A DNA stretch of 20,323 bases from a candidate division NC10 bacterium CSP1-5 (GCA_001443495.1 LDXR01000027.1:1-20323); one strand, 5' to 3'. Counted from the first letter of the stretch, positions 2,358-16,480 are shown. Notes: generated by a model from the sequence alone, not told the origin. A program made the numbers and translations.

Positions 2358-2421
2358 GTATGCTGGCTGCCGATAGCCGGTATGTTGCTCGATGCTGACG
2401 GCTGACTGCTGACAGCCATAC
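2358..2421. repeat. Heptamer-period repeat array A (GCTGAnn family)
   Basis: Eight consecutive 7-mers fit an unbroken 7-bp register from 2365: GGCTGCC, GATAGCC, GGTATGT, TGCTCGA, TGCTGAC, GGCTGAC, TGCTGAC, AGCCATA. The outer ends form an inverted pair (GTATG at 2358, CATAC at 2417). The array fills part of the pncA-queE spacer just upstream of the queE promoter. It has no coding potential that I trust. Confidence 0.75.
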
Positions 2422-2432
2422 CCGGGGAGCCG

Positions 2433-2461
2433 TTGACATCGTCGGGATGCCGGCGTAGAGT
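2433..2461 (+). promoter_or_regulatory. Sigma70-type promoter of queE
   Basis: The -35 TTGACA at 2433-2438 is separated by 17 bp from the -10 TAGAGT at 2456-2461 (4 of 6 consensus bases). The predicted transcription start is near 2468, almost on the first candidate ATG of queE at 2470. Confidence 0.6.
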
Positions 2462-2469
2462 TTCCTGCG

Positions 2470-3168
2470 ATGGATGCGATGGAGATGACCTTTCAAGTCA
2501 GTGAGCTGTTTACCTCTATCCAGGGTGAGGGAGAGGTCATCGGGATGCCTTCCCACTTCATCCGCCTCTATCGGTGCGACCTCACCTGCTCCTGGTGCGA
2601 TTCCAAGTACACCTGGCTCCGGCAAGATCAGGCGGTTGAGCGAAAGGATTATACTTCCATGAGCGCGGAAGAGATCTTGGGGTGGCTTCGGAAGGAACCT
2701 CGCGCTCCTCTCGTGACCCTCACCGGCGGCGAACCAATGCTTCAGCCGCTGCTCCCGCTCGTCGCCGCGCTTGATACGCGAGGCTATCAAGTGGTGGTGG
2801 AGACCAATGGTCTGCATAGGCCGGAGCAGACGCTACGCGAACTGGTCCGCTACTGGGCTGTCTCGCCAAAGCTCAAGAATGCAGGGATGGATATTAAGTG
2901 GGGGCCACTCGACTGGCTCGCGAAGACGCAGAATTATTATCTAAAGTTCGTCATCTGCGATCCGGCCACCGATCTGCCTGAGATCCAGGAGTTTATTGAG
3001 AGCCGTGGCCTGCCGAGCGGCAAGGTGATCCTACAGCCTGACGGCTTGGCAGCCGACTATGAGACCATCCTTCGCAGTGTCGCCGAATTCGTCCGCGATC
3101 GCGGCTACCCCTATCGCGTCCTGCCCCAGCTTCACCGGCTGCTCTGGGGCCTCCGCCGCGGGGTGTAG
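2470..3168 (+). CDS. queE: 7-carboxy-7-deazaguanine synthase (radical SAM)
   Basis: QueE converts 6-carboxy-5,6,7,8-tetrahydropterin to 7-carboxy-7-deazaguanine, the ring contraction step of preQ0/queuosine synthesis, using S-adenosylmethionine and a 4Fe-4S cluster. The N-terminal family signature ELFTSIQGEG is present (about residues 12-21). The cluster motif CX3CX2C is formed by Cys36, Cys40 and Cys43, followed by DSKYTW. The SAM-binding TLTGGEPMLQ and VVVETNG motifs follow. The C-terminal VLPQLHRLLWG is typical of the family. The length (232 aa from ATG 2470) is normal. In-frame ATGs at 2479 and 2485 are alternatives; 2485 gives the most family-like N-terminus but no candidate has a clear ribosome site. 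No queC, queD or queF is in the window. Confidence 0.93.
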   Translation: MDAMEMTFQVSELFTSIQGEGEVIGMPSHFIRLYRCDLTCSWCDSKYTWLRQDQAVERKDYTSMSAEEILGWLRKEPRAPLVTLTGGEPMLQPLLPLVAALDTRGYQVVVETNGLHRPEQTLRELVRYWAVSPKLKNAGMDIKWGPLDWLAKTQNYYLKFVICDPATDLPEIQEFIESRGLPSGKVILQPDGLAADYETILRSVAEFVRDRGYPYRVLPQLHRLLWGLRRGV

Positions 3169-3171
3169 CTG

Positions 3172-3194
3172 GTTCACAGTTCACTGTTCACAGG
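3172..3194. repeat. Heptamer-period repeat array B (GTTCAnn family, single arm)
   Basis: Three tandem 7-mers (GTTCACA, GTTCACT, GTTCACA) begin three bases after the queE stop codon. They match the left arms of the arrays in the carboxylase operon. No opposing arm is seen before the next gene. Confidence 0.7.
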
Positions 3195-3235
3195 AAGGAG
3201 AGAGAGGCGCCGCGTTTAGGGGCAGGAGCTATCTG

Positions 3236-3751
3236 ATGCGTAGGTTAGTTTTGGTGAGTGCGGGGTTGTTGTCCGTGCTCGTCGCACAGGGGGCGGAGAT
3301 GGATCTAAACAGTCAAGCCTTTCGGCCGGGGGGCATGATTCCGGCCAAGTACACCTGTGACGGAGCGGACATTTCGCCGCCGCTCACTTTGCCAGATCCA
3401 CCAGCCGGGACGAAGAGCTTTGCCCTGATCATGGATGATCCCGATGCGCCGGTGGGCACCTGGGTCCATTGGGTCATCTGGAATATTCCGGCGACCACTC
3501 GCGCCCTGGAAGAGAACATCCCCAAGACGGCGTCACTCCCGAACGGCGCAAGGCAGGGAACCAACGACTTCAAACGGATCGGCTATGGCGGACCGTGCCC
3601 CCCCTCCGGGACCCACCGGTATTTCTTCAAGCTCTACGCCCTCGATACAACGCTTAACCTGCCGCCCGAGACCACCAAGAGTGTCCTCGAGGACACGATG
3701 CGCGGCCACATCCTCGTCCAGGCCGACCTCATCGGCAAATACACCCGCTGA
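3236..3751 (+). CDS. Exported YbhB/YbcL-family (PEBP, Raf-kinase-inhibitor-like) protein
   Basis: This is a 171-residue protein of the phosphatidylethanolamine-binding-protein superfamily, bacterial YbhB/YbcL branch. The biological role of this branch is poorly defined. The start at ATG 3236 is supported by AGGAG 7 nt upstream; an open frame continues further upstream without a start of similar quality. A signal peptide is visible (MRRLVLVSAGLLSVLVAQGA, cleavage near residue 20), so the protein should be periplasmic. The fold signatures are FALIMDDPDAPVGTWVHW (DPDAP at 68-72) and the second binding-site segment GTHRYFFKLYALD (125-137). The mature length is usual for the family. It follows queE by 67 nt containing a heptamer array, so the two may share a transcript, though no functional link is evident. 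Confidence 0.92.
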   Translation: MRRLVLVSAGLLSVLVAQGAEMDLNSQAFRPGGMIPAKYTCDGADISPPLTLPDPPAGTKSFALIMDDPDAPVGTWVHWVIWNIPATTRALEENIPKTASLPNGARQGTNDFKRIGYGGPCPPSGTHRYFFKLYALDTTLNLPPETTKSVLEDTMRGHILVQADLIGKYTR

Positions 3752-3846
3752 TCGGGAGAGAATCGCTCATAGAGCTAGTGGTACATTTGAGCCGGCCTGA
3801 CCCGTCTCGGACGAGCGTTATACGCCCTCCGACCTTGTCAACAAGA

Positions 3847-3875
3847 GCAAAAAGCACCGGAGGGGCTGCCCCGGT
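3847..3875 (-). terminator. Rho-independent terminator of the TRAP operon
   Basis: Read on the minus strand, a hairpin spans 3875 to 3856 (arms ACCGG and CCGGT, one A-C mismatch, one further G-C pair, 6-nt loop). GC and a run of five T follow (3853-3849). It lies 8 nt after the stop codon of the last gene of the minus-strand operon, in a convergent intergenic region. Confidence 0.6.
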
Positions 3876-3882
3876 CCCCCTA

Positions 3883-4635
3883 TCACGTCTTGACAGGAAA
3901 GGGTTCGGAGAGCGCCATCAATTCTCGGAGCTTCGTCAGGTCATCACGGGTCAGTTGGTCGGACGCCTCAATCCGCGCAAAGGTCCCCTGCGGATCGTGC
4001 ACCATCAGCTCACTCACCTGTCGGACCACGCCCTGCGCCTTGCTGATCTTGGCATCGACCAATCCGCCGATGAGGGGCGAAAAGATCTGGAGGAACAGCG
4101 CGAGCAAGGGGTTTTTGATCTTACCGTAGACAGTAAGCTGCGTGGCGACCCACGGCTGCCCCTGATCGGCGATCCGGTATTCGAACTCGTGGACCACGAG
4201 CGCCTTGCCTCGCACGGTGAGCAACCCCCCCTTTGCTATCCCCTCCGCGAAGTAGACCCGATGCGCACCATCCCGGTAGAGGATCTCCATCTCGCCATCA
4301 AGGCCTTCGGGGTCACTGGCGCGAAAACGGTCCTTTCCTGTCCCGGTGACGGTGTACGTGCCGATCCTGAGGATCCGGGCGAGGGCCGCTCCCACATCCG
4401 GGCGGTCCAGGAGGAACTGGTGGAGGGGGGAATTCAGGATCGGGTGGTCAAGCCGCGGTGATCGCTTGAGGGTGTAATCGTTCAGCAAGGCCTCGACCTT
4501 TTCCCTGGCCCCTGCTCCGAACTCCTCGAGCGGGAGGGGGAATCGTTCGGCGGCGCCGGCCGGTGCCGGGGCGGTAGCGACGATCAGCAGGCTCAGGACG
4601 ATGCTCGCCGGACGCGTCACTGGAGCTCTCCTCAC
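3883..4635 (-). CDS. Secreted protein of unknown family, coupled to the TRAP transporter
   Basis: I do not recognise this 250-residue protein. It has an N-terminal signal peptide (hydrophobic SIVLSLLIVATAPAPAGA, cleavage near residue 28) and no other convincing membrane anchor. It is therefore probably periplasmic. The middle part (about residues 90-190) alternates short beta-like segments (YTVTGTGKDRF, GEMEILYRDGAHRVYF, VHEFEYRI, VATQLTVYGKIK). It is followed by an amphipathic, partly hydrophobic helix (NPLLALFLQIFSPLIGGLVDA), which loosely suggests a helix-grip or lipid-binding fold. That is a guess from pattern only. Its GTG start (4635) overlaps the dctM stop codon in a GTGA tetranucleotide, as do the two preceding gene pairs, so it is very likely translated with the transporter. 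A terminator follows directly. Confidence 0.85.
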   Translation of the reverse strand: MRRAPVTRPASIVLSLLIVATAPAPAGAAERFPLPLEEFGAGAREKVEALLNDYTLKRSPRLDHPILNSPLHQFLLDRPDVGAALARILRIGTYTVTGTGKDRFRASDPEGLDGEMEILYRDGAHRVYFAEGIAKGGLLTVRGKALVVHEFEYRIADQGQPWVATQLTVYGKIKNPLLALFLQIFSPLIGGLVDAKISKAQGVVRQVSELMVHDPQGTFARIEASDQLTRDDLTKLRELMALSEPFPVKT

Positions 4636-5894
4636 CGGAGCAGGATCAGGCTGAGATCCGGCACGTAGGTGATGATCATCAGGGCGATGAGATAGATGAC
4701 GAGGAAGGGAACCGACGCCCGGTACAGGGTGATGATCGGCTTGTTGAAGCGCAGGCTGCTCAGGAAGAGGTTCACCCCGATCGGCGGGGTGGAGTAACCG
4801 ATCTCCAGGTTGGCGAGGAAGATGATGCCGAGATGGATCGGGTCCACGTCGAACACCTTGGCCACCGGCAGGATCAAGGGGACGAAGACGATGGTGGCGG
4901 AGAGGATGTCCATCAGGCAGCCGACGACGAGGAGGAAGAGATTCAATAGGATCAGAAAGACCGTCCGGCTGGTGATCGTCTGCTCAAACATCCCGAGCAG
5001 GCGCATCGGCACCTGCTGATCGATCAGGAAGCTGGTGAGTCCCAGGGCGGTCCCCAGGATGATGAGGATCCCGCCGACGAGCACCGTGCTCTCCACCATG
5101 ATGCGGGGGACATCGCGGGTCAGGCTGAGGTCCCGGTAGATGAAAACCTCCACGACGAGGACGTAGGCGGCGACGATGGCGGCGACCTCTCCGGCCGTAA
5201 AGAAGCCGCCATAGATGCCAATGAGGATCAGGGGGAGAAGGAGGATCTCCCATTTGGCCTCCCACAGGGTCGTCCAGGCGACGCGCGGATCCCAGGGTCG
5301 CTGGGGCAGTCGGGCGCGGGCGCCGACGATCGAGGCGTAGAGCGCCAAGAGCAACATGAGCAACAATCCGGGGAGGATCCCCGCGATGAAGAGGTGGTCG
5401 ATGCGGGCCTGCGACACGAGCCCGTACACGATGAGCGGCAGGCTCGGAGGAAAGAGGATCCCGAGGCTCCCGGAGGTGGTAACAAGCCCCAGGGCAAAGC
5501 GGTCCGAGTAGTGATCACTGAGCAGCATCGGGTAGAGCAAGCCCCCCAGCGCGAGGATCGTGATGCCCGAGCCGCCGCTCAGCGCGGTGAAGAGGGCTGA
5601 GGCGGTCAGAGCGACGATGGCGAGTCCCCCCGGGAGCCACCCGAACCAGGCCTGGCTCAGCGCTACCAGCCGGGTGGCGCTCCGGCTCTCGGCGAGGAGC
5701 GAGCCGGCAAAGGCGAAGAGCGGCAGGGCGATGAGGGCGGGGGAGCTCACGAGGCGATACATCTCGAGCATGACGGCGGTGAGGGAGATGCCGGCCGCTG
5801 CGAAGAGGGCCAGGGCCATCCCTCCGACACCGACAAAGAGCGGCGTGCCCAGGAGGATCGTGAATGCGCCGAGACCCACGATAATCCAGATCAC
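4632..5894 (-). CDS. dctM: TRAP transporter large permease, DctM family
   Basis: DctM is the inner-membrane channel subunit of tripartite ATP-independent periplasmic transporters, which use a sodium or proton gradient to import ligands delivered by a binding protein. The protein is 420 residues (family usual 420-440) with about 12 hydrophobic segments. Recognisable features include FAGSLLAES near residue 67, the SALFTALSGGSGITILALGG stretch, the GSLGILFPPSLPLIVYG motif (about residues 147-163) and its pseudo-repeat near the C-terminus (LANLEIGYSTPPIGVNLFL), both typical DctM ion/substrate-site elements. The GTG start at 5894 overlaps the dctQ stop (GTGA). It forms the transport unit with DctQ and the binding protein encoded upstream. 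Confidence 0.95.
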   Translation of the reverse strand: MIWIIVGLGAFTILLGTPLFVGVGGMALALFAAAGISLTAVMLEMYRLVSSPALIALPLFAFAGSLLAESRSATRLVALSQAWFGWLPGGLAIVALTASALFTALSGGSGITILALGGLLYPMLLSDHYSDRFALGLVTTSGSLGILFPPSLPLIVYGLVSQARIDHLFIAGILPGLLLMLLLALYASIVGARARLPQRPWDPRVAWTTLWEAKWEILLLPLILIGIYGGFFTAGEVAAIVAAYVLVVEVFIYRDLSLTRDVPRIMVESTVLVGGILIILGTALGLTSFLIDQQVPMRLLGMFEQTITSRTVFLILLNLFLLVVGCLMDILSATIVFVPLILPVAKVFDVDPIHLGIIFLANLEIGYSTPPIGVNLFLSSLRFNKPIITLYRASVPFLVIYLIALMIITYVPDLSLILLR

Positions 5895-6397
5895 CGGTCT
5901 GTTCCTCCGCCTCCGGTCCCCCCCGCCGGCTCATTCGGGAGGATCGTCTGGAGCCCGAAGCGGAAGGCGACGATGGCGAAACCAACGGGGAGGACGAGCT
6001 GAAGCATCCAGGTGGGGACGGGGCCGAACGCCATCGACCCCGTGCCCTGCTCCTGCCGAACCAGGTCCACGGCCGCCACTCCGAGGAAGGTGGAGACGGC
6101 CGCCGCGAAGAGCAGGACGCCTCGCTCCACGAGCCGTTGATGCCGCGCAGGCAGGAAGCGCGTGAGGGCCTCGATCCGGATGTGCCGGTTCATCCGCGTC
6201 GCGAGGGAGGCCCCCATGATCCCGAGCCACAACACCAGGTGCCTCAGGAGGATGTCGACCCAGGGCAGGCCGAAGTCCCAGGCGTTCCGGAGCAGGACCT
6301 GAAGGAAGGCGAGCAGGAGCATGGCGGTGAGGACGATGACGATCAGGACCTGTTCTGCTTTTGCGAAGAACGCGTCGATCCGCCGAAGGCCCCTCAC
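5891..6397 (-). CDS. dctQ: TRAP transporter small permease, DctQ family
   Basis: DctQ is the small four-helix inner-membrane subunit that pairs with DctM. The open frame runs much further upstream (to 6751) across the binding-protein gene, but that part is Pro/Gly/Arg-rich and not DctQ-like. The start is therefore placed at GTG 6397, which overlaps the dctP stop as GTGA and gives 168 residues, normal for DctQ. The sequence shows IDAFFAKAEQVLIVIVLTAMLLLAFLQVLLRN as the first helix, then FGLPWVDILLRHLVLWLGIMGAS with the conserved W and L-R-H region of the family. NRHIRIEALTRFL and two more helices follow. A short Gly/Thr-rich tail ends the protein. It is translationally linked to both neighbours. 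Confidence 0.93.
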   Translation of the reverse strand: MRGLRRIDAFFAKAEQVLIVIVLTAMLLLAFLQVLLRNAWDFGLPWVDILLRHLVLWLGIMGASLATRMNRHIRIEALTRFLPARHQRLVERGVLLFAAAVSTFLGVAAVDLVRQEQGTGSMAFGPVPTWMLQLVLPVGFAIVAFRFGLQTILPNEPAGGTGGGGTDR

Positions 6398-7410
6398 GGC
6401 CGGCGCCCCCGGTGCTGCTGGAGGAGCGAGAGGACCTCGTCGAGGAGCGCGCGCGGGTAGAGCTTCCCCGCCTCTCGCTCCCACAGCTGGCGACTGAGCT
6501 CCGTCAGGCGGCTCTGTTCCGCCTGGTCGAGGCTCACGGTCTGGATGCCGGATCGCTTGAGGACCTGGAGGGCTTCCTGGTTCTCCTGGCGGGTCTTCAG
6601 CACCACCTGTCGCGCGTATTTCTGGGCCGTCTCCCTGAGGACGGCATGGAGATCGGCGGGGATCGTCTCCCAGCGGGAGCGCGAGACGAGCACCCCACCG
6701 ATTGCATAGGTCAGCTCCGGCGTGGACATGTGCGACACCTGGTTGAACCACTGGAGCGCGATGGCAGCCGCCGGTGGGGCGTAGAAGGCGTTGATGAGAC
6801 CGGTCTGGAGGGAGGGCAGGACCTCGGGCAGGCCGAGTGGGACAGGGGCAACCTGATACCGCTCGAAGAGAGCGGCAGCCAGCGGGTCCCCCTGCCAGGC
6901 CCAGATCTTGACCCCTTCCAGGTCTTCGCGGCGCCGGATCGGCTTTTTGGAAAAGATGTGGACGGCGCCGGCTTCGGCGAGGGCCAAGAGGACGAACCCT
7001 CGCTCCTCGAAGGCACGGGCGTATTGCGCTTCGAGCCGTCCGGTGACGAACTCGATCTCGCCGGTGTCCCGGAAGAGGAGGGGAAGTTCGAGGACCCGGA
7101 TCGACGGGACCACAGACCCCAGCCCGACGCCCGAGAAGGCGCCGGCGTGAAGTTGCCCCACCCGGATCTTGCGGAGCACGTCGATCTCGTCCCCGAGGAC
7201 GCCGCCGGGATAGAAGAGGAAACGGATGCGGCTGTTGCTCCGCTTTTGCACCTCCGCATCCATCTCCCGGAGGAGCCGCATCCAGGTCGAGCCTTCGGGC
7301 GCCAGCGTCGCAAACTTTACGGGGATCGCCTCTGCAGGTTCAAGCCGGTGTGGCGTGATCAGTAGGAGTAGCCAGATCATGGCGGCTACGATTTGTCGAG
7401 GGATTTTCAA
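6394..7410 (-). CDS. dctP: TRAP transporter periplasmic substrate-binding protein, DctP/TatP type
   Basis: This is the extracytoplasmic binding protein of the TRAP system. From TTG 7410 it has 338 residues: a short N-region, a hydrophobic segment (AAMIWLLLLITP) that looks like a signal peptide or anchor, then VKFATLAPEGSTWMRLLREM, the opening strand and helix of the DctP fold. FLFYPGGVLGDEIDVLRKIRVGQLHAG and ELPLLFRD follow, all family landmarks. In the ligand-site strand the usual Arg (KIR) is replaced by Trp170 (VKIWAWQGD), unlike carboxylate-binding DctP proteins. The frame continues upstream to 7662, but that part is a translated heptamer array overlapping tatT and is judged non-coding. 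ATG 7380 is another possible start. None has a clear ribosome site. Confidence 0.88.
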   Translation of the reverse strand: MKIPRQIVAAMIWLLLLITPHRLEPAEAIPVKFATLAPEGSTWMRLLREMDAEVQKRSNSRIRFLFYPGGVLGDEIDVLRKIRVGQLHAGAFSGVGLGSVVPSIRVLELPLLFRDTGEIEFVTGRLEAQYARAFEERGFVLLALAEAGAVHIFSKKPIRRREDLEGVKIWAWQGDPLAAALFERYQVAPVPLGLPEVLPSLQTGLINAFYAPPAAAIALQWFNQVSHMSTPELTYAIGGVLVSRSRWETIPADLHAVLRETAQKYARQVVLKTRQENQEALQVLKRSGIQTVSLDQAEQSRLTELSRQLWEREAGKLYPRALLDEVLSLLQQHRGRRP

Positions 7411-7558
7411 TGACCGATGACCGACGATCGATGACAGCAAGAATGCGACGACCGACAACGGATAACCGACGACCGCAAAGGCAGTAAAGGCAGTCCGGAA
7501 TCCTTCGGTCATCGGTGGTCGGACTTCGGCGAGCTCAGTCGAGCCGTGATCGGTCTTC
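7411..7558. repeat. Heptamer-period repeat array C (TCGGTnn/GACCGAn family)
   Basis: The whole tatT-dctP spacer is built of degenerate 7-mers: TGACCGA, TGACCGA, CGATCGA, TGACAGC at one end, CGACGAC, CGACAAC, GGATAAC, CGACGAC in the middle, and TCATCGG, TGGTCGG, ACTTCGG near the other end. The end blocks are mutually inverted (11 of 14 positions complementary in my hand alignment). The array touches the presumed TTG start of dctP and contains a palindromic 26-bp element. Confidence 0.7.
7521..7546. repeat. 26-bp palindromic element, copy 1
   Basis: This segment matches 14263-14288 at 24 of 26 positions. A stem pairs CGGC (7527-7530) with GCCG (7543-7546), then tandem G-A mismatches, one G-C pair and a 6-nt loop. 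The two differences from copy 2 are positions 9 and 24 of the element, which pair with each other. Confidence 0.65.
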
Positions 7559-7561
7559 GAC

Positions 7562-8482
7562 TTACAGGAACAGCTCATCAATCCTCTCCAGCAGCAGTCG
7601 CGCGCGGGCCTTGGCCACTTGGTTGAGCAGCCGATAATCGGGGGAGAGGTCTTCTGGAGCATCGAGGATCAGCCGGAGTTGGGTCTCGAAGAGTGTGCGG
7701 TCCTGGACCTGGATCGCATACGGATCCGCGAGGAACAGTCGCCCCATGAGGATGGTTGGTCCCGCCAGCTCCAGGACCCGGTCGAGATGTAACCTGGCGC
7801 GCTCCGGATCCCCGCCGAGGGCCCGCGATCTCGACGCGTAGTAGGCGCCGAAGAAGAGGTGGGCCCCGGCAAAAAAGTACGGCTCGTCTAGCTCCAAGAC
7901 CCGGTCCATCATCACCAGGACGCGGGGGAGATCCGCCAGCATCTCCGGCCGGTCGAGGCTCCAGTGGATAGATCCGGCCCATCCGTAGGCCGTCCAGAAG
8001 AGGGCGGGGACATCCTCTCGTCGGAGGCGGGCGAGGCTCGTGCGAAGCGCGGGCAGATCCGCGTTCAGGGAGGCCGCAAGGGCGTTGTGGCGGAGCGCGA
8101 GGAGGCGCAGCCCGTACTCGCGGCCCCTGAGGTACAGGCGGCGGGCGCGCTCCCGATGCACCTCGATTCGATGCGGATCGCGGTGGTGCCGCGTGATCTT
8201 ATCCTCGACGAAGGCAAAGGTGTAGGCACCGAACCCCTGGGAGGCCTGGAGCAGCAGGTCCGGGTTGTCGGGCGAGGCCTCGAGGAAAACCTCGAGGAGC
8301 TTGAGGTTCGACGCCAGGGCCTGTTCCGCGAGGATGAGGTCCTCCTCGCGGTAGAAGGCGGCCATGCCGTCGCGAAAGATCTCCGTCGCGGAGGCCACGG
8401 TGACCTGTTTCAGGACCGGGCCGCAGCCTGACGCGAGGATAGTCATCATGGCGAGTGTGACGAGGGACCGCAGGCTTGGCAC
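7562..8482 (-). CDS. tatT: TRAP transporter TatT component family lipoprotein (TPR-type)
   Basis: TatT is the periplasmic T component of TPR-protein-associated TRAP transporters (TPATs), described from Treponema pallidum Tp0956, where it assembles as a helical TPR-like trimer that meets the binding protein. This copy is 306 residues. The N-terminus looks like a lipoprotein signal (MPSLRSLVTLAMMTILASGC, Cys20 as lipid site). Mature features fit the family: FRDGMAAFYREEDLILAEQALASNLKLLEVFLEASPDNPDLLLQASQGFGAYTFAFVED, then RARRLYLRGREYGLRLLALR. A tyrosine/alanine helix pair (FWTAYGWAGSIHWSLDRPEML) follows, and further helical repeats containing ARLHLDRVLEL and PYAIQVQDRTLFETQLRLIL. The GTG start at 8482 has GGAGG overlapping it; ATG 8449 would leave too short a signal. 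It heads the TRAP operon. Confidence 0.88.
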   Translation of the reverse strand: MPSLRSLVTLAMMTILASGCGPVLKQVTVASATEIFRDGMAAFYREEDLILAEQALASNLKLLEVFLEASPDNPDLLLQASQGFGAYTFAFVEDKITRHHRDPHRIEVHRERARRLYLRGREYGLRLLALRHNALAASLNADLPALRTSLARLRREDVPALFWTAYGWAGSIHWSLDRPEMLADLPRVLVMMDRVLELDEPYFFAGAHLFFGAYYASRSRALGGDPERARLHLDRVLELAGPTILMGRLFLADPYAIQVQDRTLFETQLRLILDAPEDLSPDYRLLNQVAKARARLLLERIDELFL

Positions 8483-8497
8483 CTCCGCTCGTGGGCT

Positions 8498-8513
8498 CGC
8501 GAAAATCGTGCCA
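8498..8513 (-). promoter_or_regulatory. Possible sigma54 promoter upstream of tatT
   Basis: On the minus strand the sequence TGGCACGATTTTCGCG keeps the perfect -24 block TGGCACG and the GG-N10-GC spacing of sigma54 promoters. It has C for T within the -12 TTGC. The predicted start of transcription near 8487 would leave a leader of only about four bases before GTG 8482, which weakens the call. Confidence 0.3.
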
Positions 8514-8576
8514 CGATACCATATTTCACTTCACGGCGATGGCGCTGATCGGACCCCTCACAGCCCCTTGGGGGAG

Positions 8577-8599
8577 CGCCAGGCGCTATGCGCCTGGCG
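8577..8599 (-). terminator. Strong hairpin after the glycine-zipper lipoprotein gene
   Basis: A perfect 10-bp inverted repeat (CGCCAGGCGC and GCGCCTGGCG) with a 3-nt loop begins two bases after the stop codon of the minus-strand lipoprotein gene. No T run follows, so it may be a Rho-assisted or mRNA-stabilising structure rather than a classical intrinsic terminator. It separates the lipoprotein gene from the TRAP operon. Confidence 0.5.
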
Positions 8600-8600
8600 T

Positions 8601-9212
8601 TTACCGGAAATCGGCCTCGGTGAATCGCAGGGCCCACCCACTGCCGCGGGGATCCACTTGGATGGTCCGGTCGTAGTGTCCCACCGTTCGCGTGCCGAAC
8701 TGGGTATCTACCAGGGCCCTGGCGACCACGCGATGGGGGCCCAGGTCCAGGGAGTACTGCCGGGACTCTTGAGGATTGAGCAGAATGGCGGTTCTGCTGG
8801 GCGTGACCTGAGGGTCGGCGTCGACAAAGACCTCCAGGCGCCATCGTGTGCTGTTGAGGAGCTGTCCCGAGGTCGGGTCGACGGTGGGCGCCGTTGCGGT
8901 GGGGTACCCTGCCTGCGGCTGCGTCGGGGCGGGATACGGGGTGGATGCCACAGGAGGTGCAGGAGGCAGGGGGGCTGCTTCCGCGCGCTCATTCTCGATG
9001 GCCCCACCGATGATTGCACCGGTCAGGAGGCCAAGGCCGGCCCCGATGGCGGCGCCGGCCCCGGCGCTGCCGGTGGCGCCTCCGATAATGGCGCCTGTCC
9101 CTGCCCCCAGGGCGGCGCCGGTCACGGCCCCCTTCTCCTGGGTGGTGAGAGGTCGCTGGGCACAGGCGCTGAGCAGGGCGACGGCAGCGATGACAACGGT
9201 GAGTCTTCGCAT
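8601..9212 (-). CDS. Glycine-zipper lipoprotein with C-terminal beta-rich domain
   Basis: This is a predicted outer- or inner-membrane lipoprotein of 203 residues of unknown function. ATG 9212 is chosen because GGAGGGG lies 8 nt upstream; an in-frame upstream extension has no such site. The signal sequence MRRLTVVIAAVALLSAC gives lipid-site Cys17. Residues about 28-67 form a glycine zipper (repeated GAxxG, GAIIGG twice), the membrane-inserting motif of Gly-zipper/OmpA-like and SlyB-type lipoproteins. A Pro/Ala linker follows, then a domain from about residue 113 (LNSTRWRLEVFVDADPQVTPSRTAILLNPQESRQYSLDLGPHRVVARAL). Its alternating pattern suggests a small beta sandwich, and it ends in GWALRFTEADFR. 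A hairpin lies directly after the stop. Function cannot be assigned. Confidence 0.85.
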   Translation of the reverse strand: MRRLTVVIAAVALLSACAQRPLTTQEKGAVTGAALGAGTGAIIGGATGSAGAGAAIGAGLGLLTGAIIGGAIENERAEAAPLPPAPPVASTPYPAPTQPQAGYPTATAPTVDPTSGQLLNSTRWRLEVFVDADPQVTPSRTAILLNPQESRQYSLDLGPHRVVARALVDTQFGTRTVGHYDRTIQVDPRGSGWALRFTEADFR

Positions 9213-9430: not shown

Positions 9431-9515
<85 letters not shown>

Positions 9516-9556
9516 ACGTCCTCGCGGATTTTCAAGGCACATATAATAATATAATA

Positions 9557-9584: not shown

Positions 9585-9610
9585 CGGGAAAATTGGCGCG
9601 CGATCGCCCG

Positions 9611-9779
9611 CCAGCCATCAGCCGTCCGCTGTCAGCACAATTCCAGCGACCAGCAGCCAGCCGTCAGCTGCCAGCAGTAGCCGACCAACGATTGTTCGCA
9701 TCCTCCCGGGGAAAGCTGACAACTAGGGGCTGAGACCCGGAACTTTGCTGACTGCTGATTGCCGATAGCTCACAGCTAC
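9611..9779. repeat. Heptamer-period repeat array D (GCTGAnn/CAGCnnn family)
   Basis: From 9612 the register CAGCCAT, CAGCCGT, CCGCTGT, CAGCACA, ATTCCAG, CGACCAG, CAGCCAG, CCGTCAG, CTGCCAG, CAGTAGC holds a 7-bp step. A second arm with complementary sense lies at 9748-9779 (CTGACTG, CTGATTG, CCGATAG, CTCACAG). The second arm runs into the stop codon of the response regulator gene. Nothing gene-like is seen between 9516 and 9775. Confidence 0.7.
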
Positions 9780-10171: not shown

Positions 10172-10230
10172 GGGTCCTCCCTGGGGTGCGACCCTGCGGC
10201 TTGCAACCCTTATGCCAGGGGAGGTCCTTC

Positions 10231-10273
10231 TCTGGGGCCCTCTGGGGCCGGATCCCTGATCAAATATGTGATT
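10231..10273. promoter_or_regulatory. Putative operator region of the carboxylase operon
   Basis: Two perfect direct 9-mers TCTGGGGCC start at 10231 and 10241, exactly one helical turn apart, at about -76 to -58 from the predicted start. Next to the -35 box lies a dyad ATCA-N6-TGAT (10259-10272). Both are plausible protein-binding sites; neither regulator is identified. Confidence 0.35.
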
Positions 10274-10300
10274 GACATTTATCCGAGGCGCTGATATGAA
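10272..10300 (+). promoter_or_regulatory. Sigma70-type extended -10 promoter of the pcc-mcm operon
   Basis: TTGACA (10272-10277), a 17-bp spacer and TATGAA (10295-10300) with an upstream TGA (extended -10 TGn). The predicted start is near 10307, giving a leader of about 34 nt with AAGGAG at 10326-10331. Confidence 0.7.
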
Positions 10301-10340
10301 AAAAACTCCGTTTTGGAATGCGTGAAAGGAGCCTGGGGCG

Positions 10341-11891
10341 ATGTCCCACGAAGAGAAACTCAAGGAGCTTCATCGACGAAAGGAAGCAGCGCTCGCGGGT
10401 GGAGGTCCCGAACGGATCGAAAAGCAGCATCAGGCGGGCAAACTCACCGCGCGGGAACGGCTCAATGTGCTGCTCGATCCGGGAAGCTTCACGGAAATGG
10501 ACATGCTGGTCACCCACCGCTGTACCGATTTCGGGATGGAGAAGCAGAAGCTCCCCGGCGATGGCGTCGTGATCGGGCATGGCACGATCGAGGGGCGGCC
10601 GGTGTACATCTTCGCCTATGATTTCACCAGCCTCGGTGGATCGCTCAGCGTGACCAACGCACAGAAGATCTGCAAGGTCATGGACCTGGCGGTCAAGATG
10701 GGTGTTCCCCTCGTCAGCCTCAACGATTCGGGGGGCGCCAGGATTCAGGAGGGGGTGGACTCCCTCGCCGGCTATGCCGATATCTTCTTGCGGAACGTCC
10801 TGGCCTCGGGGGTCATCCCCCAGGTCACGGCGGTCATGGGACCCTGCGCCGGGGGGGCGGTCTATTCGCCGGCCCTGATGGACTTCGTCGTCATGGTGAA
10901 GGGGACGAGCTACATGTTCGTCACCGGCCCCGATGTGGTCAAGACGGTCCTGCAAGAAGAGGTCACCCTTGAGGAGCTCGGAGGGGCGATGACGCACAAT
11001 TCCGCGTCGGGGGTGGCCCACTTCGCCGCGGATTCGGAGGAGGAGGGCCTGCTCACCATTCGGGAGCTCCTGAGCTTCCTCCCCCAAAATAACGTGGAAA
11101 GCCCGCCCTGGCGGCAGCCGACCGACGATCCCCAGCGGATGGAAGAGGGCCTCAACACGCTGGTCCCCGAGAATCCCAACAAGCCGTACGACATGAAGGA
11201 GCTGATTCGGTTGGTCGTGGATGATGGGTACTTCTTCGAGGTGCAAGAGCATCTCGCCCAGAACATCATCGTCGGCTTTGCCCGGCTCGATGGCCATCCG
11301 GTGGGCATCGTGGCCAACCAGCCGATGGTGCTCGCAGGATGCCTCGACATCAACTCCTCGATCAAGGCGGCCCGGTTCATCCGCTTCTGCGACTGCTTCA
11401 ATCTCCCGATTATCACCCTGCAAGATGTCCCGGGGTATCTCCCCGGGACGGCCCAGGAACACGGCGGGATTATCAAGCATGGGGCCAAACTCCTCTTTGC
11501 CTACGGCGAGGCCACGGTCCCGAAGCTCACGGTGATTACCCGCAAGTCCTACGGCGGCGCCTACTGCGTCATGGGGTCCAAGCACATGCGGGCCGATTAC
11601 AATCTGGCCTATCCGACAGCGGAGATCGCCGTGATGGGGCCCGAGGGGGCGGTGAATATCCTCTATCGTCGGGAGCTCGTCAAGGCGACCGACTTGGAGG
11701 CCTTCCGGGCCGAGCGGGTCAAAGAATTCAAGGACAAGTTCGCCAACCCCTATGTGGCGGCCGAGAAAGGCTACATCGACGAGGTGATCGAGCCGAAAGA
11801 AACGCGACCCAAGCTCATCAGGGCGTTGAAGATTCTGGCCAACAAGCGGGACACGAACCCTCCGAAAAAGCACGGGAACATCCCCCTCTAG
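10341..11891 (+). CDS. pccB: Acyl-CoA (propionyl-CoA) carboxylase carboxyltransferase subunit
   Basis: This beta subunit transfers the carboxyl group from carboxybiotin to an acyl-CoA, most likely propionyl-CoA to give methylmalonyl-CoA given the mutase and epimerase downstream. It is 516 residues, the normal length. The family features are present in order: [18 protein letters not shown] near the N-terminus, [24 protein letters not shown] and [17 protein letters not shown] (N-terminal crotonase half). [40 protein letters not shown] and [20 protein letters not shown] (C-terminal half) follow. The position usually read for acyl-chain preference reads AYCVMG rather than AYDVMS of human PCCB, so acetyl-CoA activity is not excluded. 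AAGGAG sits 9 nt before ATG 10341. Confidence 0.93.
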
Positions 11892-11907
11892 CGCGCTCCG
11901 CGCGCTC

Positions 11908-12046
11908 GTTCACAGTTCCTGGTTCACCGTTCATGGCAGAGCAGCGGCGCGCGTTCGGATTGGGGGTGGCAGCGACCTGTGATGGTTCTGGTCTTGGATC
12001 TCAGGAGAGGGCGATCCGGTCTGCGAACCGTGAACCCTGAACCATG
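11908..12046. repeat. Heptamer-period repeat array E (GTTCAnn, two inverted arms)
   Basis: The left arm at 11908-11936 reads GTTCACA, GTTCCTG, GTTCACC, GTTCATG. The right arm at 12023-12046 reads GCGAACC, GTGAACC, CTGAACC, ATG. The arms are inverted (17 of 24 positions complementary by hand alignment) around an 86-bp unrelated core. The final ATG is the start codon of the biotin carboxylase gene. A small GCGCG-CTC-CGCGC hairpin precedes it, directly at the pccB stop. Confidence 0.8.
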
Positions 12047-13546
12047 TTTAGCAAGATTCTGATCGCGAATCGGGGCGAGATCGCGCTGCGGGTCATTCGG
12101 GCCTGCCGGGAGATGGGGGTCCGGACCGTGGCGATCTACTCCGAGGCCGACCGCTCGGCGCTCCACGTGCGGAAGGCGGATGAGGCGTACTGCGTCGGGC
12201 CTGCCCCCTCGGCCCAGAGCTATCTTCGCGCGGATCGCATCCTCGAGGTGGCCCGGCAGAGCCGGGCAGACGCCATTCACCCTGGCTACGGCTTCCTCTC
12301 GGAGAATCCCGCCTTTGCCGAGGCCTGTGAAAAGGCAGGCATCGTCTTCATCGGTCCCTCCTCGGAAACCATGAAACTGTGCGGGTCGAAGACCGCCTCG
12401 CGGCGTCTTGCCAAGCAGGTGGGCGTGCCGACCGTTCCCGGGATCGACCAGGATCTGACCGATGAAGAGATCCTCCGCCGGGCACCCGAGATCGGCTTTC
12501 CCATCCTCATCAAGGCGGCGGCGGGCGGCGGGGGTAAAGGTATGCGGGTCGTCCGAGAGTCGGCCGAGCTGGCTTCGGCCATTCGGGCCTCCCGCTCGGA
12601 GGGGCAATCCTCATTCGGTGACCCCGCCGTCTTCATCGAGAAATATTTGATTCGTCCGCGCCACATCGAGATGCAGATCCTGGCCGATGCGACCGGCCAC
12701 ACCCTGTATCTGGGCGAACGCGAGTGTTCGCTGCAGCGCCGCCATCAGAAGGTGGTGGAAGAGGCCCCGTCTCCCGTCATGACCGCGGAGCTCCGCCAGC
12801 GGATGGGAGAAGCCGCCGTGGCGCTCGCTCGCGGATGCCGCTACCGGAACGCGGGAACCGCCGAGTTCCTGGTCGATGCCGACCGGAACTTTTACTTCCT
12901 GGAGATCAACGCCCGGCTCCAGGTGGAACATCCGGTGACCGAGCTCACCACGGGGATCGACCTGGTCAAGAGCCAGATCCGGATCGCCGCCGGGGAGCCC
13001 CTTGCCCTCCGTCAGGAGGAGGTGGAGTGGCGGGGCCACGCGATCGAGTGTCGCATCTACGCCGAGGACCCGGCGAACAACTTCGCTCCGTTCCCCGGAA
13101 AGCTCATCCTCTATCGACCTCCTTCCGGACCAGGCATTCGGAACGATAGCGGGGTCTACGAGGGCTTCGAGGTGCCGATCTACTATGATCCCATGCTCTC
13201 CAAGCTGATTGCCTGGGGGAGAGATCGGCATGAAGCGATTGGTCGGATGCGGCAGGCCCTCCAGGATTACCTCGTTGCCGGCATCAAGACTTCGATCCCC
13301 TTTCTCGTCGAGGTGATGGCGGACCCCGCCTTCATCAAGGGAGATGTGGACACCACCTTCATCGAAGCCTTTGTGAAGCGGAAGAAGATGGACGAGCCGA
13401 GGCACCGCGAGGTGGGGCTTGTCGCGGCGGCGATTCATGCGTACCTCATGGAGAAGGAGCGGAGGCCTCCGGCCCCGGCGGCTGCCGCCGGCGCGGTCTC
13501 CCCGTGGGCACTGGCAGCCCGTCACAACGCCCTGCGACGCCGCTAG
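12044..13546 (+). CDS. accC: Biotin carboxylase subunit of acyl-CoA carboxylase
   Basis: This ATP-grasp enzyme carboxylates biotin using ATP and bicarbonate. The 500 residues include the N-terminal motif KILIANRGEIALRVIRAC, HPGYGFLSENP (79-89), the ATP-binding glycine loop GGGGKGM (161-167) with Lys157 before it, and the catalytic HQK (His234, Lys236) in ECSLQRRHQK. The metal and bicarbonate residues Glu274, Glu287, Asn289, Arg291, Gln293-Glu295 lie in GTAEF and EINARLQVEHPVTE. It ends about 50 residues beyond a minimal biotin carboxylase, at SPWALAARHNALRRR, a stretch like the hinge that leads into the BT domain in fused PccA. The ATG 12044 lies inside a heptamer array and has no ribosome site within 30 nt. 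AGGAGAGGG is 34 nt upstream. Confidence 0.94.
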   Translation: MFSKILIANRGEIALRVIRACREMGVRTVAIYSEADRSALHVRKADEAYCVGPAPSAQSYLRADRILEVARQSRADAIHPGYGFLSENPAFAEACEKAGIVFIGPSSETMKLCGSKTASRRLAKQVGVPTVPGIDQDLTDEEILRRAPEIGFPILIKAAAGGGGKGMRVVRESAELASAIRASRSEGQSSFGDPAVFIEKYLIRPRHIEMQILADATGHTLYLGERECSLQRRHQKVVEEAPSPVMTAELRQRMGEAAVALARGCRYRNAGTAEFLVDADRNFYFLEINARLQVEHPVTELTTGIDLVKSQIRIAAGEPLALRQEEVEWRGHAIECRIYAEDPANNFAPFPGKLILYRPPSGPGIRNDSGVYEGFEVPIYYDPMLSKLIAWGRDRHEAIGRMRQALQDYLVAGIKTSIPFLVEVMADPAFIKGDVDTTFIEAFVKRKKMDEPRHREVGLVAAAIHAYLMEKERRPPAPAAAAGAVSPWALAARHNALRRR

Positions 13547-13550
13547 GCGG

Positions 13551-13705
13551 GTTCAGGGTTCAGAGTTCATGGTGCATGGCGATAGGATGGATGATGAGTT
13601 TTGAGACGATCTTCCATCCGCTGGCGACTGACGAATCACCGGGTAGCCGATCTTGGCGTTTTGAAGGCTCTCAACCCTGAACCATGAACCCTGCACTATG
13701 AACCA
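13551..13705. repeat. Heptamer-period repeat array F (GTTCAnn, two inverted arms)
   Basis: The left arm 13551-13579 (GTTCAGG, GTTCAGA, GTTCATG, GTGCATG) starts four bases after the accC stop. The right arm 13671-13705 reads TCAACCC, TGAACCA, TGAACCC, TGCACTA, TGAACCA. By hand alignment 23 of 29 positions are complementary between arms. The core between them (about 90 bp) is unrelated to the cores of the other arrays. Confidence 0.8.
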
Positions 13706-13720
13706 ACTCGGGAGTTGACC

Positions 13721-14230
13721 GTGGAGTTCTTTGCTCGGATCGGAGACAAAGAGCACCGCATCGAGGTGACCGACCTGGAAGGCTCACACTACCGGCTCTC
13801 CGTGGACGGGGTGGCCCGGGACGTGGACTGCGTCAGGATCTCGGAGAGCTGCTACTCCCTGATTCTGGATGGCACCTCCTATGAGGTGGACATCATCAGG
13901 GGTGTGAATCCCTACGCGGTGTGGGTGAAAGGGGAGGTCCACGATGTGGAGGTCCTTACCGAGCGGGAGAAGCGCCTGAAGGCGGTCACCCGCAAAGCGG
14001 CAGCGGCTCAGGAGGGACGGCAAGTGATCACCGCCCCGATGCCGAGCAAGGTGGTGCGCCTCCTGGTAGCTGTCGGAGAGCAGGTGAACCCGGGCAACGG
14101 GGTCATCGTGGTCGAGGCGATGAAGATGGAGAACGAGCTGCGGTCCACGGGAGCGGGCACCGTGCGAGAGATTCGCGTCAAGGAGGGGGAGGCGGTGGTC
14201 GGCGGCCATCCCCTCGTCATCATCGAATAA
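13721..14230 (+). CDS. Biotin carboxyl carrier subunit with BT-like N-terminal domain
   Basis: This 169-residue subunit carries biotin between the carboxylase and carboxyltransferase. GTG 13721 is preferred because GGGAG lies 6 nt upstream; TTG 13715 has no room for it. The C-terminal biotinyl domain (about 101-169) has the EAMKMEN motif with biotin-accepting Lys135, preceded by the proline-containing ITAPMPSKV strand. The first about 85 residues alternate charged and hydrophobic residues (YRLSVDGVARDV, SYSLILDG-like, TSYEVDIIRG). They look like the BT (subunit-contact) beta domain found between the carboxylase and carrier in single-chain PccA. Together with the 500-residue carboxylase the total equals a fused alpha subunit of about 670 residues. 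The arrangement resembles three-subunit archaeal and syntroph-type enzymes. Confidence 0.9.
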   Translation: MEFFARIGDKEHRIEVTDLEGSHYRLSVDGVARDVDCVRISESCYSLILDGTSYEVDIIRGVNPYAVWVKGEVHDVEVLTEREKRLKAVTRKAAAAQEGRQVITAPMPSKVVRLLVAVGEQVNPGNGVIVVEAMKMENELRSTGAGTVREIRVKEGEAVVGGHPLVIIE

Positions 14231-14242
14231 GGCGACGGCCTG

Positions 14243-14343
14243 GTTCACAGTTCATGGTTCATGGACTTCGACGAGCTCAGTCGAGTCGTTCACGGTAAGG
14301 TCCAGCTCTCCATCTGTGAACTGTCAACTGTGAACCGTGAACC
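14243..14343. repeat. Heptamer-period repeat array G (GTTCAnn, two inverted arms)
   Basis: The left arm 14243-14264 (GTTCACA, GTTCATG, GTTCATG) and right arm 14314-14343 (CTGTGAA, CTGTCAA, CTGTGAA, CCGTGAA) are inverted; 16 of 22 positions are complementary by hand alignment. The core contains copy 2 of the 26-bp palindrome. The array starts 12 bases after the carrier gene stop and ends 28 bases before the mutase start. Confidence 0.8.
14263..14288. repeat. 26-bp palindromic element, copy 2
   Basis: This matches 7521-7546 except at element positions 9 (A for G) and 24 (T for C). The stem here is CGAC with GTCG, so the A-T pair replaces a G-C pair. Tandem G-A mismatches and a 6-nt loop are identical in both copies. 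Confidence 0.65.
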
Positions 14344-14371
14344 TTTTCGTCGGTCATCGAGGAGTAGGATG

Positions 14372-16048
14372 ATGTCTGATGAAGATCGGGAACGACTCGA
14401 ACAAGCGTTGAGGGAGTGGGAAGAAGAGACGCTGAAGAAGGCCTTGGCCAGGGCCGCCGAGCGGCAGGCGGACTTTCAGACCCATTCGCGGATTCCGGTC
14501 GGGCGCCTCTACACCCCCCTTGATCTCGCCGAGTGGGACTACCGGGCAAAGGTCGGCTTTCCCGGAGAGTATCCGTTCACCCGGGGCATCCAGCCCACCA
14601 TGTATCGAGGCCGGGTTTGGACGATGCGGCAATACGCAGGCTTCGGGACGGCGGAGGAGACCAATCGCCGGTTCCGTTATCTTCTGGAACAGGGCCAAAC
14701 CGGCCTCAGCGTCGCCTTCGACCTACCCACCCAGATCGGCTACGACTCCGATGCCCCCGAGGCGCATGGAGAGGCGGGCAAGGTGGGGGTCGCCATCGAT
14801 TCGCTCGAGGACATGGAGCGCCTCCTGGACGGTATCCCGCTGGACCGGGTGAGTACGTCGATGACCATCAACGCCACCGCCACGGTTCTGCTCTGCATGT
14901 ATGCGGCGGTCGCAGAGAAGCAGGGGGTTCCGCCGGACAAGGTCAGCGGGACCGTGCAGAACGACATCCTGAAGGAGTACATCGCGCGCGGGACCTATAT
15001 CTTCCCTCCGGGGCCCTCCATGCGCCTCATCACCGACCTCTTTGCCTTCTGCGCAGAGCGCATGCCCCGATGGCACCCGATCAGTATCAGCGGCTATCAC
15101 ATCCGGGAGGCGGGGGCCACGGCGGCGCAGGAGCTGAGCTTCACGCTCGCCGATGGGGTCGCCTACGTCGAGGCCGCGGTGAAGGCCGGTCTCGATGTAG
15201 ACGCTTTCGCCTCTCAGCTCTCCTTCTTCTTTGCCTGCCACAACAACTTCTTTGAGGAGGTAGCCAAGTTCCGAGCCGCCCGGCGCCTCTGGGCCTCCCT
15301 GATGCGAGAGCGCTTCGGCGCCAAGAATCCCCAATCCTGGATGCTCCGGTTTCATACCCAGACGGCCGGCGTCACGCTGACCGCCCAGCAGCCGGAGAAC
15401 AATATTATCCGGGTGGCCCTGCAGGCCCTCGCCGCGGTCCTCGGAGGGACGCAGTCGCTTCACACCAATTCCCGGGACGAGGCGCTCGGGTTACCCACCG
15501 AGGAGTCGGCCCGGATTGCACTCCGGACCCAGCAGGTCATCGCGTACGAGAGCGGGGCCGGCGATGCGGTCGATCCCCTGGGGGGCTCGTACTTTATCGA
15601 GAGCCTGACCAATCGACTGGAGGAGGAGGCGCGCCGGTATCTGGCCAGGATCGACGCGCTGGGAGGGATGCTGAGGGCGATCGAGATCGGCTACGTCCAG
15701 AAAGAGATCCAGGAGGCCGCCTATCGGGAGCAGGCGCAGGTGGAGAGCAAGGCGAAGATCGTGGTCGGCCTCAATGAATACGCGACGGTGCAGGAGGTCA
15801 AGATCCCGGTCTTCCGGGTGGACCCGCGGATCGAGGAAGAGCGGCGGCGACATCTCCAAGAGCTGCGCCGGCGGCGGGATAACGGCGCGGTGGAGCGGAC
15901 GTTAGCCGAGCTCGAGGCGTCGGCCCGAGGCGACGCCAATCTTCTCCCCCCCATTCTGGCGGCGGTCAAGGCCTATGCGACGATCGGCGAGATCTGCACG
16001 CGGCTGCGACGGGTCTTCGGGGAACATCGCGAGATCATCACCGTGTAG
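14372..16048 (+). CDS. mcmA: Methylmalonyl-CoA mutase, large catalytic subunit (no B12-binding domain)
   Basis: This subunit carries out the coenzyme B12-dependent rearrangement of (R)-methylmalonyl-CoA to succinyl-CoA. The 558 residues correspond only to the substrate-binding TIM-barrel half; the cobalamin-binding domain with DxHxxG is absent and must be a separate protein. Compared with Propionibacterium mutase, key residues are kept: Tyr88 in [13 protein letters not shown], Gln196 in TVQNDIL, Arg206 in [10 protein letters not shown], and Tyr242-His243 in [11 protein letters not shown]. The Tyr and Arg favour methylmalonyl-CoA over isobutyryl- or hydroxyisobutyryl-CoA. The sequence [10 protein letters not shown] is the usual late landmark. 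AGGAG at 14360-14364 is 7 nt before ATG 14372; ATG 14369 is adjacent and possible. The epimerase gene starts 2 nt after the stop. Confidence 0.95.
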
Positions 16049-16050
16049 CC

Positions 16051-16476
16051 ATGATTAAGCGTGTAGCGCACATCGCTATCGCCGTGCGGAGCGTGGATGA
16101 GGCGTCCCGGTTCTTTGAACAGGTCCTCGGCCTTCGCCGGGAGCGGACCGAGGTGGTCGAGACAGAGAGGGCAAAGGTCGCCTTCTTCCCCGTCGGGGGG
16201 ACCGAGATCGAACTCGTAGAGGGGACAGAGCCGGGCAACCCCCTGGAGCGCTTCCTGGAGAAGAGGGGGGAAGGCATCCACCATGTCTGCCTCGAGGTAG
16301 CGAACCTGGACGAAACGATGGGCCGGCTCCGAGCGGCCGGGGTTCCCCTCCTCGACGAGACTCCCCGTCCGGGGGCAGATGGAACCCGGGTCGCATTTAT
16401 CCATCCCAAAGGAGCCCATGGCATCCTCATTGAATTAGTCGAGGGACCTGCCCTAAACCATGCCTCTGAACCCTGA
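16051..16476 (+). CDS. mce: Methylmalonyl-CoA epimerase (VOC superfamily)
   Basis: This metal-dependent epimerase interconverts (S)- and (R)-methylmalonyl-CoA, linking the carboxylase product to the mutase substrate. The 141 residues form two beta-alpha-beta-beta-beta repeats of the vicinal oxygen chelate fold. Metal-ligand candidates are His7 in VAHIAIAV, Glu54 in GTEIELVEG, the His77-His78 pair in GEGIHHVCLEV and Glu128 in HGILIELVE. These motifs are diagnostic for the family. The start is 2 nt after the mutase stop, indicating tight coupling. The last residues (about NHASEP) and the TGA stop are encoded within a heptamer repeat arm. The C-terminal tail beyond ELVEG is therefore probably recent and non-conserved. 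Confidence 0.93.
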   Translation: MIKRVAHIAIAVRSVDEASRFFEQVLGLRRERTEVVETERAKVAFFPVGGTEIELVEGTEPGNPLERFLEKRGEGIHHVCLEVANLDETMGRLRAAGVPLLDETPRPGADGTRVAFIHPKGAHGILIELVEGPALNHASEP

Positions 16477-16480
16477 ACCC
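16456..16480. repeat. Heptamer-period repeat array H (TGAACCC, single arm)
   Basis: The segment reads AAACCA, TGCCTCT, GAACCCT, GAACCC in a 7-bp register and includes the epimerase stop codon at 16474-16476. Only the TGAACC-sense arm is found, the orientation of the right arms of arrays E, F and G. Confidence 0.6.

What the first reader, a model, noticed from the sequence alone, without database searches (positions are those of the whole stretch)
2358..16480. Eight intergenic arrays with a strict 7-bp period in three sequence families
Seen directly: at 2358-2421, 3172-3194, 7411-7558, 9611-9779, 11908-12046, 13551-13705, 14243-14343 and 16456-16480, the spacers are made of degenerate heptamers that hold register over several to many units. 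Three families occur: GTTCAnn, GCTGAnn and TCGGTnn, with complements. Units vary in sequence but not in length, so period is conserved more than sequence. Known analogy: heptanucleotide STRR repeats of cyanobacteria. The families here differ, and several of these arrays are arranged as inverted arms. Eight copies in 20 kb implies hundreds genome-wide if typical. This is the strongest candidate for an undescribed element class here.
Basis: partly seen in the sequence, partly recalled or inferred. Interest (0 to 1): 0.75.

Follow-up and report, generated by a model that had tools for sequence, protein, structure and literature searches.

The report
Inverted heptamer arms of IVS-like elements
The 7-bp arrays between these genes are the paired ends of small parasitic DNA elements whose complete form carries one gene for a four-helix-bundle protein, the same protein known from insertions inside bacterial 23S ribosomal RNA, so several puzzling 7-bp repeats in different bacteria may turn out to be one kind of element.

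Summary
The eight heptamer arrays are real, specific to period 7, and mostly arranged as inverted arms; the genome (a Ca. Methylomirabilis relative) holds hundreds. The arrays are not the element itself. In close relatives the same three heptamer families flank a four-helix-bundle gene (PF05635/TIGR02436, the 'S23' protein of 23S rRNA intervening sequences, IVS), sometimes in this same operon. Of 139 scored copies of this gene from about ten phyla, 83 have period-7 arrays on both sides, against 0-3 for other periods tested except 8 (15 copies). In a Bacteroidota test set the score was 15 of 29, against 0 of 116 control positions. Each lineage has its own heptamer, the two arms of a copy match each other, and the heptamer follows the protein: 13 of 14 pairs at 70% identity or more and at unrelated sites share it. 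Heptamer arms also flank the gene in cyanobacterial plasmids and in a real 23S IVS (Azospirillum). Best explanation: IVS-like selfish elements spread into operon junctions; the window holds ORF-less short forms. RNase III excision and protein-heptamer binding are inferred, not shown. How the element moves is unknown.

The parts
2358..2421 (.). GCTGA-family heptamer block, direct units, between the isochorismatase-like gene (reverse) and the 7-carboxy-7-deazaguanine-synthase-like gene
   Evidence: gene names from sequence reading only
3172..3193 (.). Solo GTTCA arm, three units, no inverted partner in the spacer
7408..7440 (.). Left arm of a TCGGT/TGACCGA-family element
   Evidence: the same family flanks an intact 4HB gene in G003 (L151)
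7502..7522 (.). Right (inverted) arm of the same element, running into a REP-like palindrome
   Evidence: RNA fold z -2.9 for 7405-7550
9608..9682 (.). Left arm of a GCTGA/TCAGC-family element between tRNA-Leu and a response-regulator-like gene
9746..9777 (.). Right (inverted) arm of the same element
11908..11937 (.). Left GTTCA arm at the pccB-accC junction
12018..12046 (.). Right (inverted) GTTCA arm; it runs into the accC start codon
13549..13582 (.). Left GTTCA arm at the accC-BCCP junction
13672..13705 (.). Right (inverted) GTTCA arm
14243..14264 (.). Left GTTCA arm at the BCCP-mutase junction
   Evidence: RNA fold z -3.4 for 14243-14343
14312..14343 (.). Right (inverted) GTTCA arm
16456..16480 (.). 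Solo GTTCA-family arm (right-hand type) that supplies the stop codon of the epimerase-like gene
16046..16053 (+). Empty site: mutase stop and epimerase start two bases apart; filled by a GTTCA-armed 4HB element in G005, G003 and G006

Best explanation
The arrays are the terminal arms of small selfish elements of the 23S-rRNA intervening-sequence (IVS/S23) kind that have spread into operon junctions. SHOWN: a complete element is [array of a lineage-specific heptamer] - [gene for a four-helix-bundle S23/IVP protein, about 120 aa] - [inverted array of the same heptamer], about 0.5 kb. ORF-less and partly deleted forms of the same families exist, and the window holds the ORF-less form. Arms and gene occur together at unrelated sites, so they behave as one unit. 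Filled and empty versions of one junction exist. The left arm usually begins within about 10 nt of the upstream stop codon, with no evident target-site duplication. INFERRED: in the transcript the two arms pair into a long imperfect hairpin that RNase III cuts out, as shown experimentally for 23S IVSs, so insertions in rRNA, introns and operons are tolerated. INFERRED, weaker: the 7-nt unit is the spacing at which the cognate four-helix-bundle pentamer contacts its own arms, which would explain why the heptamer stays with the protein lineage while two of the seven bases drift. How the element moves at the DNA level is unknown.
For: Same-genus 4HB elements carry the window's three families: GTTCA (L162), TCAGC/GCTGA (L147), TCGGT (L151). 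The bccp-mcm, accC-bccp, pccB-accC and mcm-mce junctions carry intact, relic or ORF-less elements in different species; a TCGGT-armed 4HB relic in G003 matches at E 1e-14. Association: 32/52 with both flanks at period 7, against at most 4 for other non-multiple periods and 6/327 control ORFs; Bacteroidota 15/29 against 0/116; all 4HB copies 83/139. Own arms match: 19.0 against 9.2 for swapped arms, own arm best of 50 in 32 of 50; RNA duplex -41.9 against -19.3 kcal/mol. Heptamer follows protein: 3-4% shared below 50% identity, 95-100% at 70% or more; 13 of 14 unrelated-site pairs. Two copies in one genome at unrelated sites show sharp ends. Named isolates: 10 of 13 plasmid 4HB genes have period-7 arms, including one inside a 23S rRNA gene. 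Coxiella IVS: heptameric repeats before the S23 ORF, cut by RNase III (PMC4990558). 4HB dN/dS 0.08-0.18.
Against: No 4HB relic is found in the window or in 400 kb of this genome, and a complete related genome (G026) has arrays but no 4HB gene, so ORF-less forms persist without it. Unit-by-unit pairing of the arms in register is weak (median p 0.30), and RNA folding of the window elements beats shuffles clearly in only two of five cases, marginally in a third. About 40% of 4HB copies lack clear period-7 arms on both sides. Period 8 occurs and is not clearly lineage-bound (p 0.13). ORF-less elements show no strand preference. No experiment was possible.
Confidence: 0.75

Rival explanations
1. 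Plain heptanucleotide microsatellites (STRR-type) made by slipped-strand mispairing in spacers, unrelated to any gene.
For: Arrays vary in copy number and lie mainly in spacers; slippage may well lengthen arms, e.g. the very long GCTAAAA arms in Pseudanabaena galeata.
Against: Arms are inverted pairs of one family, flank one gene family at a rate far above controls, and the heptamer follows the protein at unrelated sites.
Confidence: 0.08
2. Host regulatory or processing hairpins of operons (RNA-level punctuation), bound or processed by a host protein; the 4HB gene is an occasional passenger.
For: Nearly every junction of the propionyl-CoA carboxylase/mutase operon has an element in several species, and 4HB genes are co-directional with their neighbours (81/99 against a baseline of about 0.65, p 2e-4).
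Against: The heptamer changes completely between species at the same junction, one junction is empty in this genome, and heptamer and protein travel together to unrelated sites.
Confidence: 0.12
3. Arms of elements moved by a reverse transcriptase, with the 4HB protein acting like the related Avd protein of diversity-generating retroelements.
For: 4HB proteins match the Avd model weakly (NCBIfam NF033474, below cut-off).
Against: The genome has no RVT_1 hit and neither do several array-rich relatives.
Confidence: 0.05
4. REP-type palindromes moved by a Y1 (RAYT/IS200-like) transposase.
For: Insertion without evident target-site duplication next to defined sequence; Y1 genes are common in the order.
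Against: Several array-bearing relatives have no Y1 hit, including the 99%-complete G024 and G034; the heptamer follows the 4HB protein instead. A separate REP-like palindrome occurs inside two window elements.
Confidence: 0.06

Closest known systems
Intervening sequences (IVS) of bacterial 23S rRNA with the S23/IVP open reading frame
   Same: Same protein family; arms form a stem around the ORF; ORF-less and ORF-bearing forms; heptameric repeats reported upstream of the ORF in Coxiella (PMC4990558); Azospirillum 23S IVS has inverted heptamer arms
   Different: Here the elements sit in protein-gene operon junctions, in hundreds of arms per genome and in many heptamer lineages; RNase III excision is not shown here
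Cyanobacterial heptanucleotide STRRs
   Same: Period 7, degenerate units, spacers, many copies; on Pseudanabaena, Anabaena, Nostoc, Aulosira and Calothrix plasmids heptamer arrays flank the same 4HB gene as inverted arms
   Different: Described as tandem repeats, not as arms of an element (own knowledge of the STRR literature); I found no paper making the link in this library
P6b stem of the cyanobacterial tRNA-Leu(UAA) intron
   Same: Degenerate heptanucleotide repeats that base-pair into a hairpin (PMC3488679)
   Different: Inside a group I intron; not examined here for a 4HB ORF
TAACTGA heptamer repeats of marine Beggiatoaceae (PMC4679880)
   Same: Intergenic heptamer direct repeats, abundant, unknown function
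   Different: A single invariant heptamer, only one inverted case, no S23/IVP protein mentioned
23S_rRNA_IVP genes reported in cas loci (PMC3936711)
   Same: Same protein family between cas genes; Pseudanabaena galeata and Anabaena sp. 90 show the pattern with heptamer arms
   Different: The paper lists them among functions associated with CRISPR-Cas loci; the arms suggest insertion elements

Membership tests
23S rRNA IVS / S23 elements | ORF, when present, encodes a PF05635/TIGR02436 four-helix-bundle protein | tested here: met
   for complete elements of the same families; the window's own copies lack the ORF
23S rRNA IVS / S23 elements | Ends are complementary and can form a stem | tested here: met
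   mixed for individual window elements
23S rRNA IVS / S23 elements | Inserted in a 23S rRNA gene | tested here: not met
   Window elements lie in protein-gene spacers; one related element does lie in 23S rRNA. So filed as IVS-like, not as rRNA IVS
23S rRNA IVS / S23 elements | Excised from RNA by RNase III | not testable with these tools
   Shown for Coxiella in PMC4990558; needs RNA data here
Cyanobacterial STRR | Tandem degenerate heptanucleotides in spacers | tested here: met
Cyanobacterial STRR | Occurrence in cyanobacteria | tested here: not met
   Nearest named relative is Ca. Methylomirabilis
REP/RAYT palindromes | Associated Y1 transposase in the genome | tested here: inconclusive
   One hit in this genome, none in several array-bearing relatives
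Diversity-generating retroelements (Avd) | Reverse transcriptase present | tested here: not met
   No RVT_1 hit in this genome

The most novel reading that the evidence does not exclude
One cross-phylum class of selfish elements, defined by a four-helix-bundle protein and arms built of that protein's own heptamer (or octamer), accounts for 23S rRNA IVSs, cyanobacterial STRRs, heptamer stems in tRNA-Leu introns, 'IVP' genes in cas operons and the spacer arrays of Methylomirabilota; the protein is a lineage-specific reader of its 7-nt unit.
Probability: 0.45. Interest if true: 0.9.

Novelty: new variant of a known kind. Interest (0 to 1): 0.8.

Why it matters
The function and spread of the S23/IVP protein and of heptanucleotide repeats have been open questions for about three decades. 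The link makes both testable: each protein lineage predicts its own heptamer, and each orphan heptamer array predicts a protein lineage. It also offers a simple reading of IVP genes reported in cas loci, and warns that many operon spacers are element-derived.

Tried and rejected
Microsatellite slippage alone (rejected by the 4HB association and by matched inverted arms). Reverse-transcriptase partner (no RVT_1 in this genome). Y1 transposase as sole mover (absent from several array-bearing relatives). Strict unit-by-unit covariation of the arms: weak. Rfam: no family matches the elements. 4HB relics in the window or in 400 kb of the genome: none. Period set by protein lineage: not significant. 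The first flank analysis used wrong coordinates for minus-strand loci; one search replaces its 4HB figures, and only its control figure is used. Ten literature searches found no paper linking heptamer arrays to S23/IVP genes; the library is open-access only, so absence there is not proof.

Full report
WHAT WAS CHECKED. The eight arrays are real. Inside them lag-7 identity is 0.44-0.81, against 0.263 window-wide, and period 7 has the strongest local excess of all periods tested from 2 to 14. The pattern GTTCAnnGTTCAnnGTTCA occurs 124 times in the 2.77 Mb genome and its reversed control 0 times; GYTSA units give 197 against 0. In 400 kb of this genome arrays recur as inverted pairs in many heptamer families (GTTCA, GCTGA, TCGGT, GTGAT, GTCCG, GTCAA, CTGAG). 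The arrays occur in all families of the order except f3, and are essentially absent from the 25 genomes of f7 in the same class. The nearest named relative is Candidatus Methylomirabilis sp. MAG-BB-18.

THE KEY STEP. Comparing the spacers of one operon (pccB-accC-BCCP-mutase-epimerase; gene names from sequence reading) among relatives showed that the arms are conserved in layout but not in sequence, and that some spacers contain an ORF between the arms. The ORF is a four-helix-bundle protein of the 23S rRNA intervening-sequence family (PF05635; TIGR02436 and, weakly, the Avd model; solved relative 2GSC at E 3e-18). The pccB-accC junction carries GTTCA arms in four species, GCTGA arms in G005 (97.7% identical to this genome in the PccB protein), and a different heptamer plus an intact 4HB gene in G006. 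The mutase-epimerase junction is empty in this genome (stop and start two bases apart) and filled by a GTTCA-armed 4HB element in G003, G005 and G006. That 4HB gene is under purifying selection (dN/dS 0.08-0.18). In G003 the accC-BCCP spacer holds TCGGT arms around only the last third of a 4HB gene (69% identity, E 1e-14): a decay intermediate between full elements and the ORF-less forms of the window.

IS THE ASSOCIATION GENERAL? Of 52 4HB loci from this order and about ten other groups, 32 have period-7 arrays in both flanks and 45 in at least one, while other non-multiple periods give at most 4. Flanks of 327 ORFs in the array-rich home genome give 6. A later test set from Bacteroidota gave 15 of 29 against 0 of 116 control positions in the same loci. 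Pooling 144 distinct copies, 83 of 139 scored have both flanks at period 7, 15 at period 8, and 0-3 at periods 5, 6, 9, 10, 11 and 13. Named complete plasmids agree: 10 of 13 4HB genes, in Pseudanabaena, Calothrix, Nostoc, Aulosira, Anabaena, Stanieria, Azospirillum and Riemerella, have period-7 arms. In Pseudanabaena galeata and Anabaena sp. 90 the element lies between cas6 and cas4. The Azospirillum copy lies inside a 23S rRNA gene (RF02541, 2527 bits).

ARMS AND PROTEIN FORM A UNIT. A copy's left arm matches its own inverted right arm (mean score 19.0) far better than other copies' arms (9.2); the own arm is the best of 50 in 32 of 50. Predicted RNA duplexes are -41.9 against -19.3 kcal/mol for swapped arms, and the left arm is G-rich in 41 of 48. 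Heptamer sharing rises with protein identity: 3-4% below 50%, 23% at 50-60%, 43% at 60-70%, 95-100% at 70% or more. For pairs at unrelated genomic sites with 70% identity or more, 13 of 14 share the heptamer (after removing one pair that is really the same site); several of these pairs belong to one lineage, so they are not fully independent. Two copies in one Bacteroidota genome at unrelated sites (84% protein identity) share four-unit arms with sharp ends and no evident target-site duplication; in both, the arm supplies the upstream gene's stop codon. In 57 of 87 elements a co-directional upstream gene ends near the left-arm start, mostly within 10 nt (the search range was -80 to +25, and short operon gaps contribute).

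MECHANISM. Shown: architecture, association, unit behaviour, filled and empty sites. Known for the 23S relatives: RNase III excision, with heptameric repeats just upstream of the Coxiella S23 ORF and the cut at the first repeat (PMC4990558). In cyanobacterial tRNA-Leu introns degenerate heptamers pair into a hairpin (PMC3488679). Inferred for the window: the arms pair in RNA and are cut or tolerated there. 4HB genes are co-directional with their neighbours more often than the baseline (81 of 99 against about 0.65, p 2e-4), which fits an RNA-level tolerance filter, but ORF-less elements show no such bias. Weak points: arms do not pair strictly unit by unit, and only two of five window elements fold clearly better than shuffles, a third marginally. 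The heptamer-protein link suggests, but does not show, that the pentameric protein reads its own 7-nt unit. The mover is unknown: no reverse transcriptase in this genome, and Y1 transposases are not consistently present.

NOVELTY. The protein, rRNA IVSs and heptanucleotide repeats are known separately. I found no paper, in an open-access library only, that joins them or describes such elements in operon junctions. A 2013 survey noted IVP genes in cas loci (PMC3936711) and MacGregor described TAACTGA heptamers (PMC4679880), without this link. I therefore file it as a new variant of a known kind (IVS-like elements), not as an rRNA IVS, because the rRNA location is not met in the window.

Noticed in passing
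window 14265-14288 and 7523-7546: A REP-like palindrome (ACTTCGACGAGCTCAGTCGAGTCG and ACTTCGGCGAGCTCAGTCGAGCCG) sits inside two of the elements and has many matches in related genomes (query 3910-3956).
   Followed up: partly
L223 and L233 (Pseudanabaena galeata and Anabaena sp. 90 plasmids), L225 (Picosynechococcus PCC 7003): 4HB genes lie between cas6 and cas4, or between cas10 and cmr3; heptamer or octamer arms suggest they are insertions, not Cas proteins.
   Followed up: partly
L238, L244, L269, L271, L293, L225: About one in six arm-bearing 4HB elements has octamer instead of heptamer arms, e.g. GTTCACTT GTTCACGT, as if a 5-nt core had a 3-nt instead of a 2-nt spacer.
   Followed up: partly
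L193, L194: 4HB genes with strong non-heptameric inverted repeats around them (own-arm scores 34 and 38).
   Followed up: no
L204 (G005 contig 206), 3' end of the epimerase gene: GTTCA arrays appear to interrupt the last codons of the epimerase-like gene, which is intact in this genome.
   Followed up: no
window 11892-11906: A short GC hairpin (GCGCGCTCCGCGCGC) lies between the pccB stop and the left arm; a different hairpin sits there in G005.
   Followed up: no
G026 (closed genome, same order): Array-rich genome with no PF05635 gene: ORF-less arms persist without the protein.
   Followed up: no
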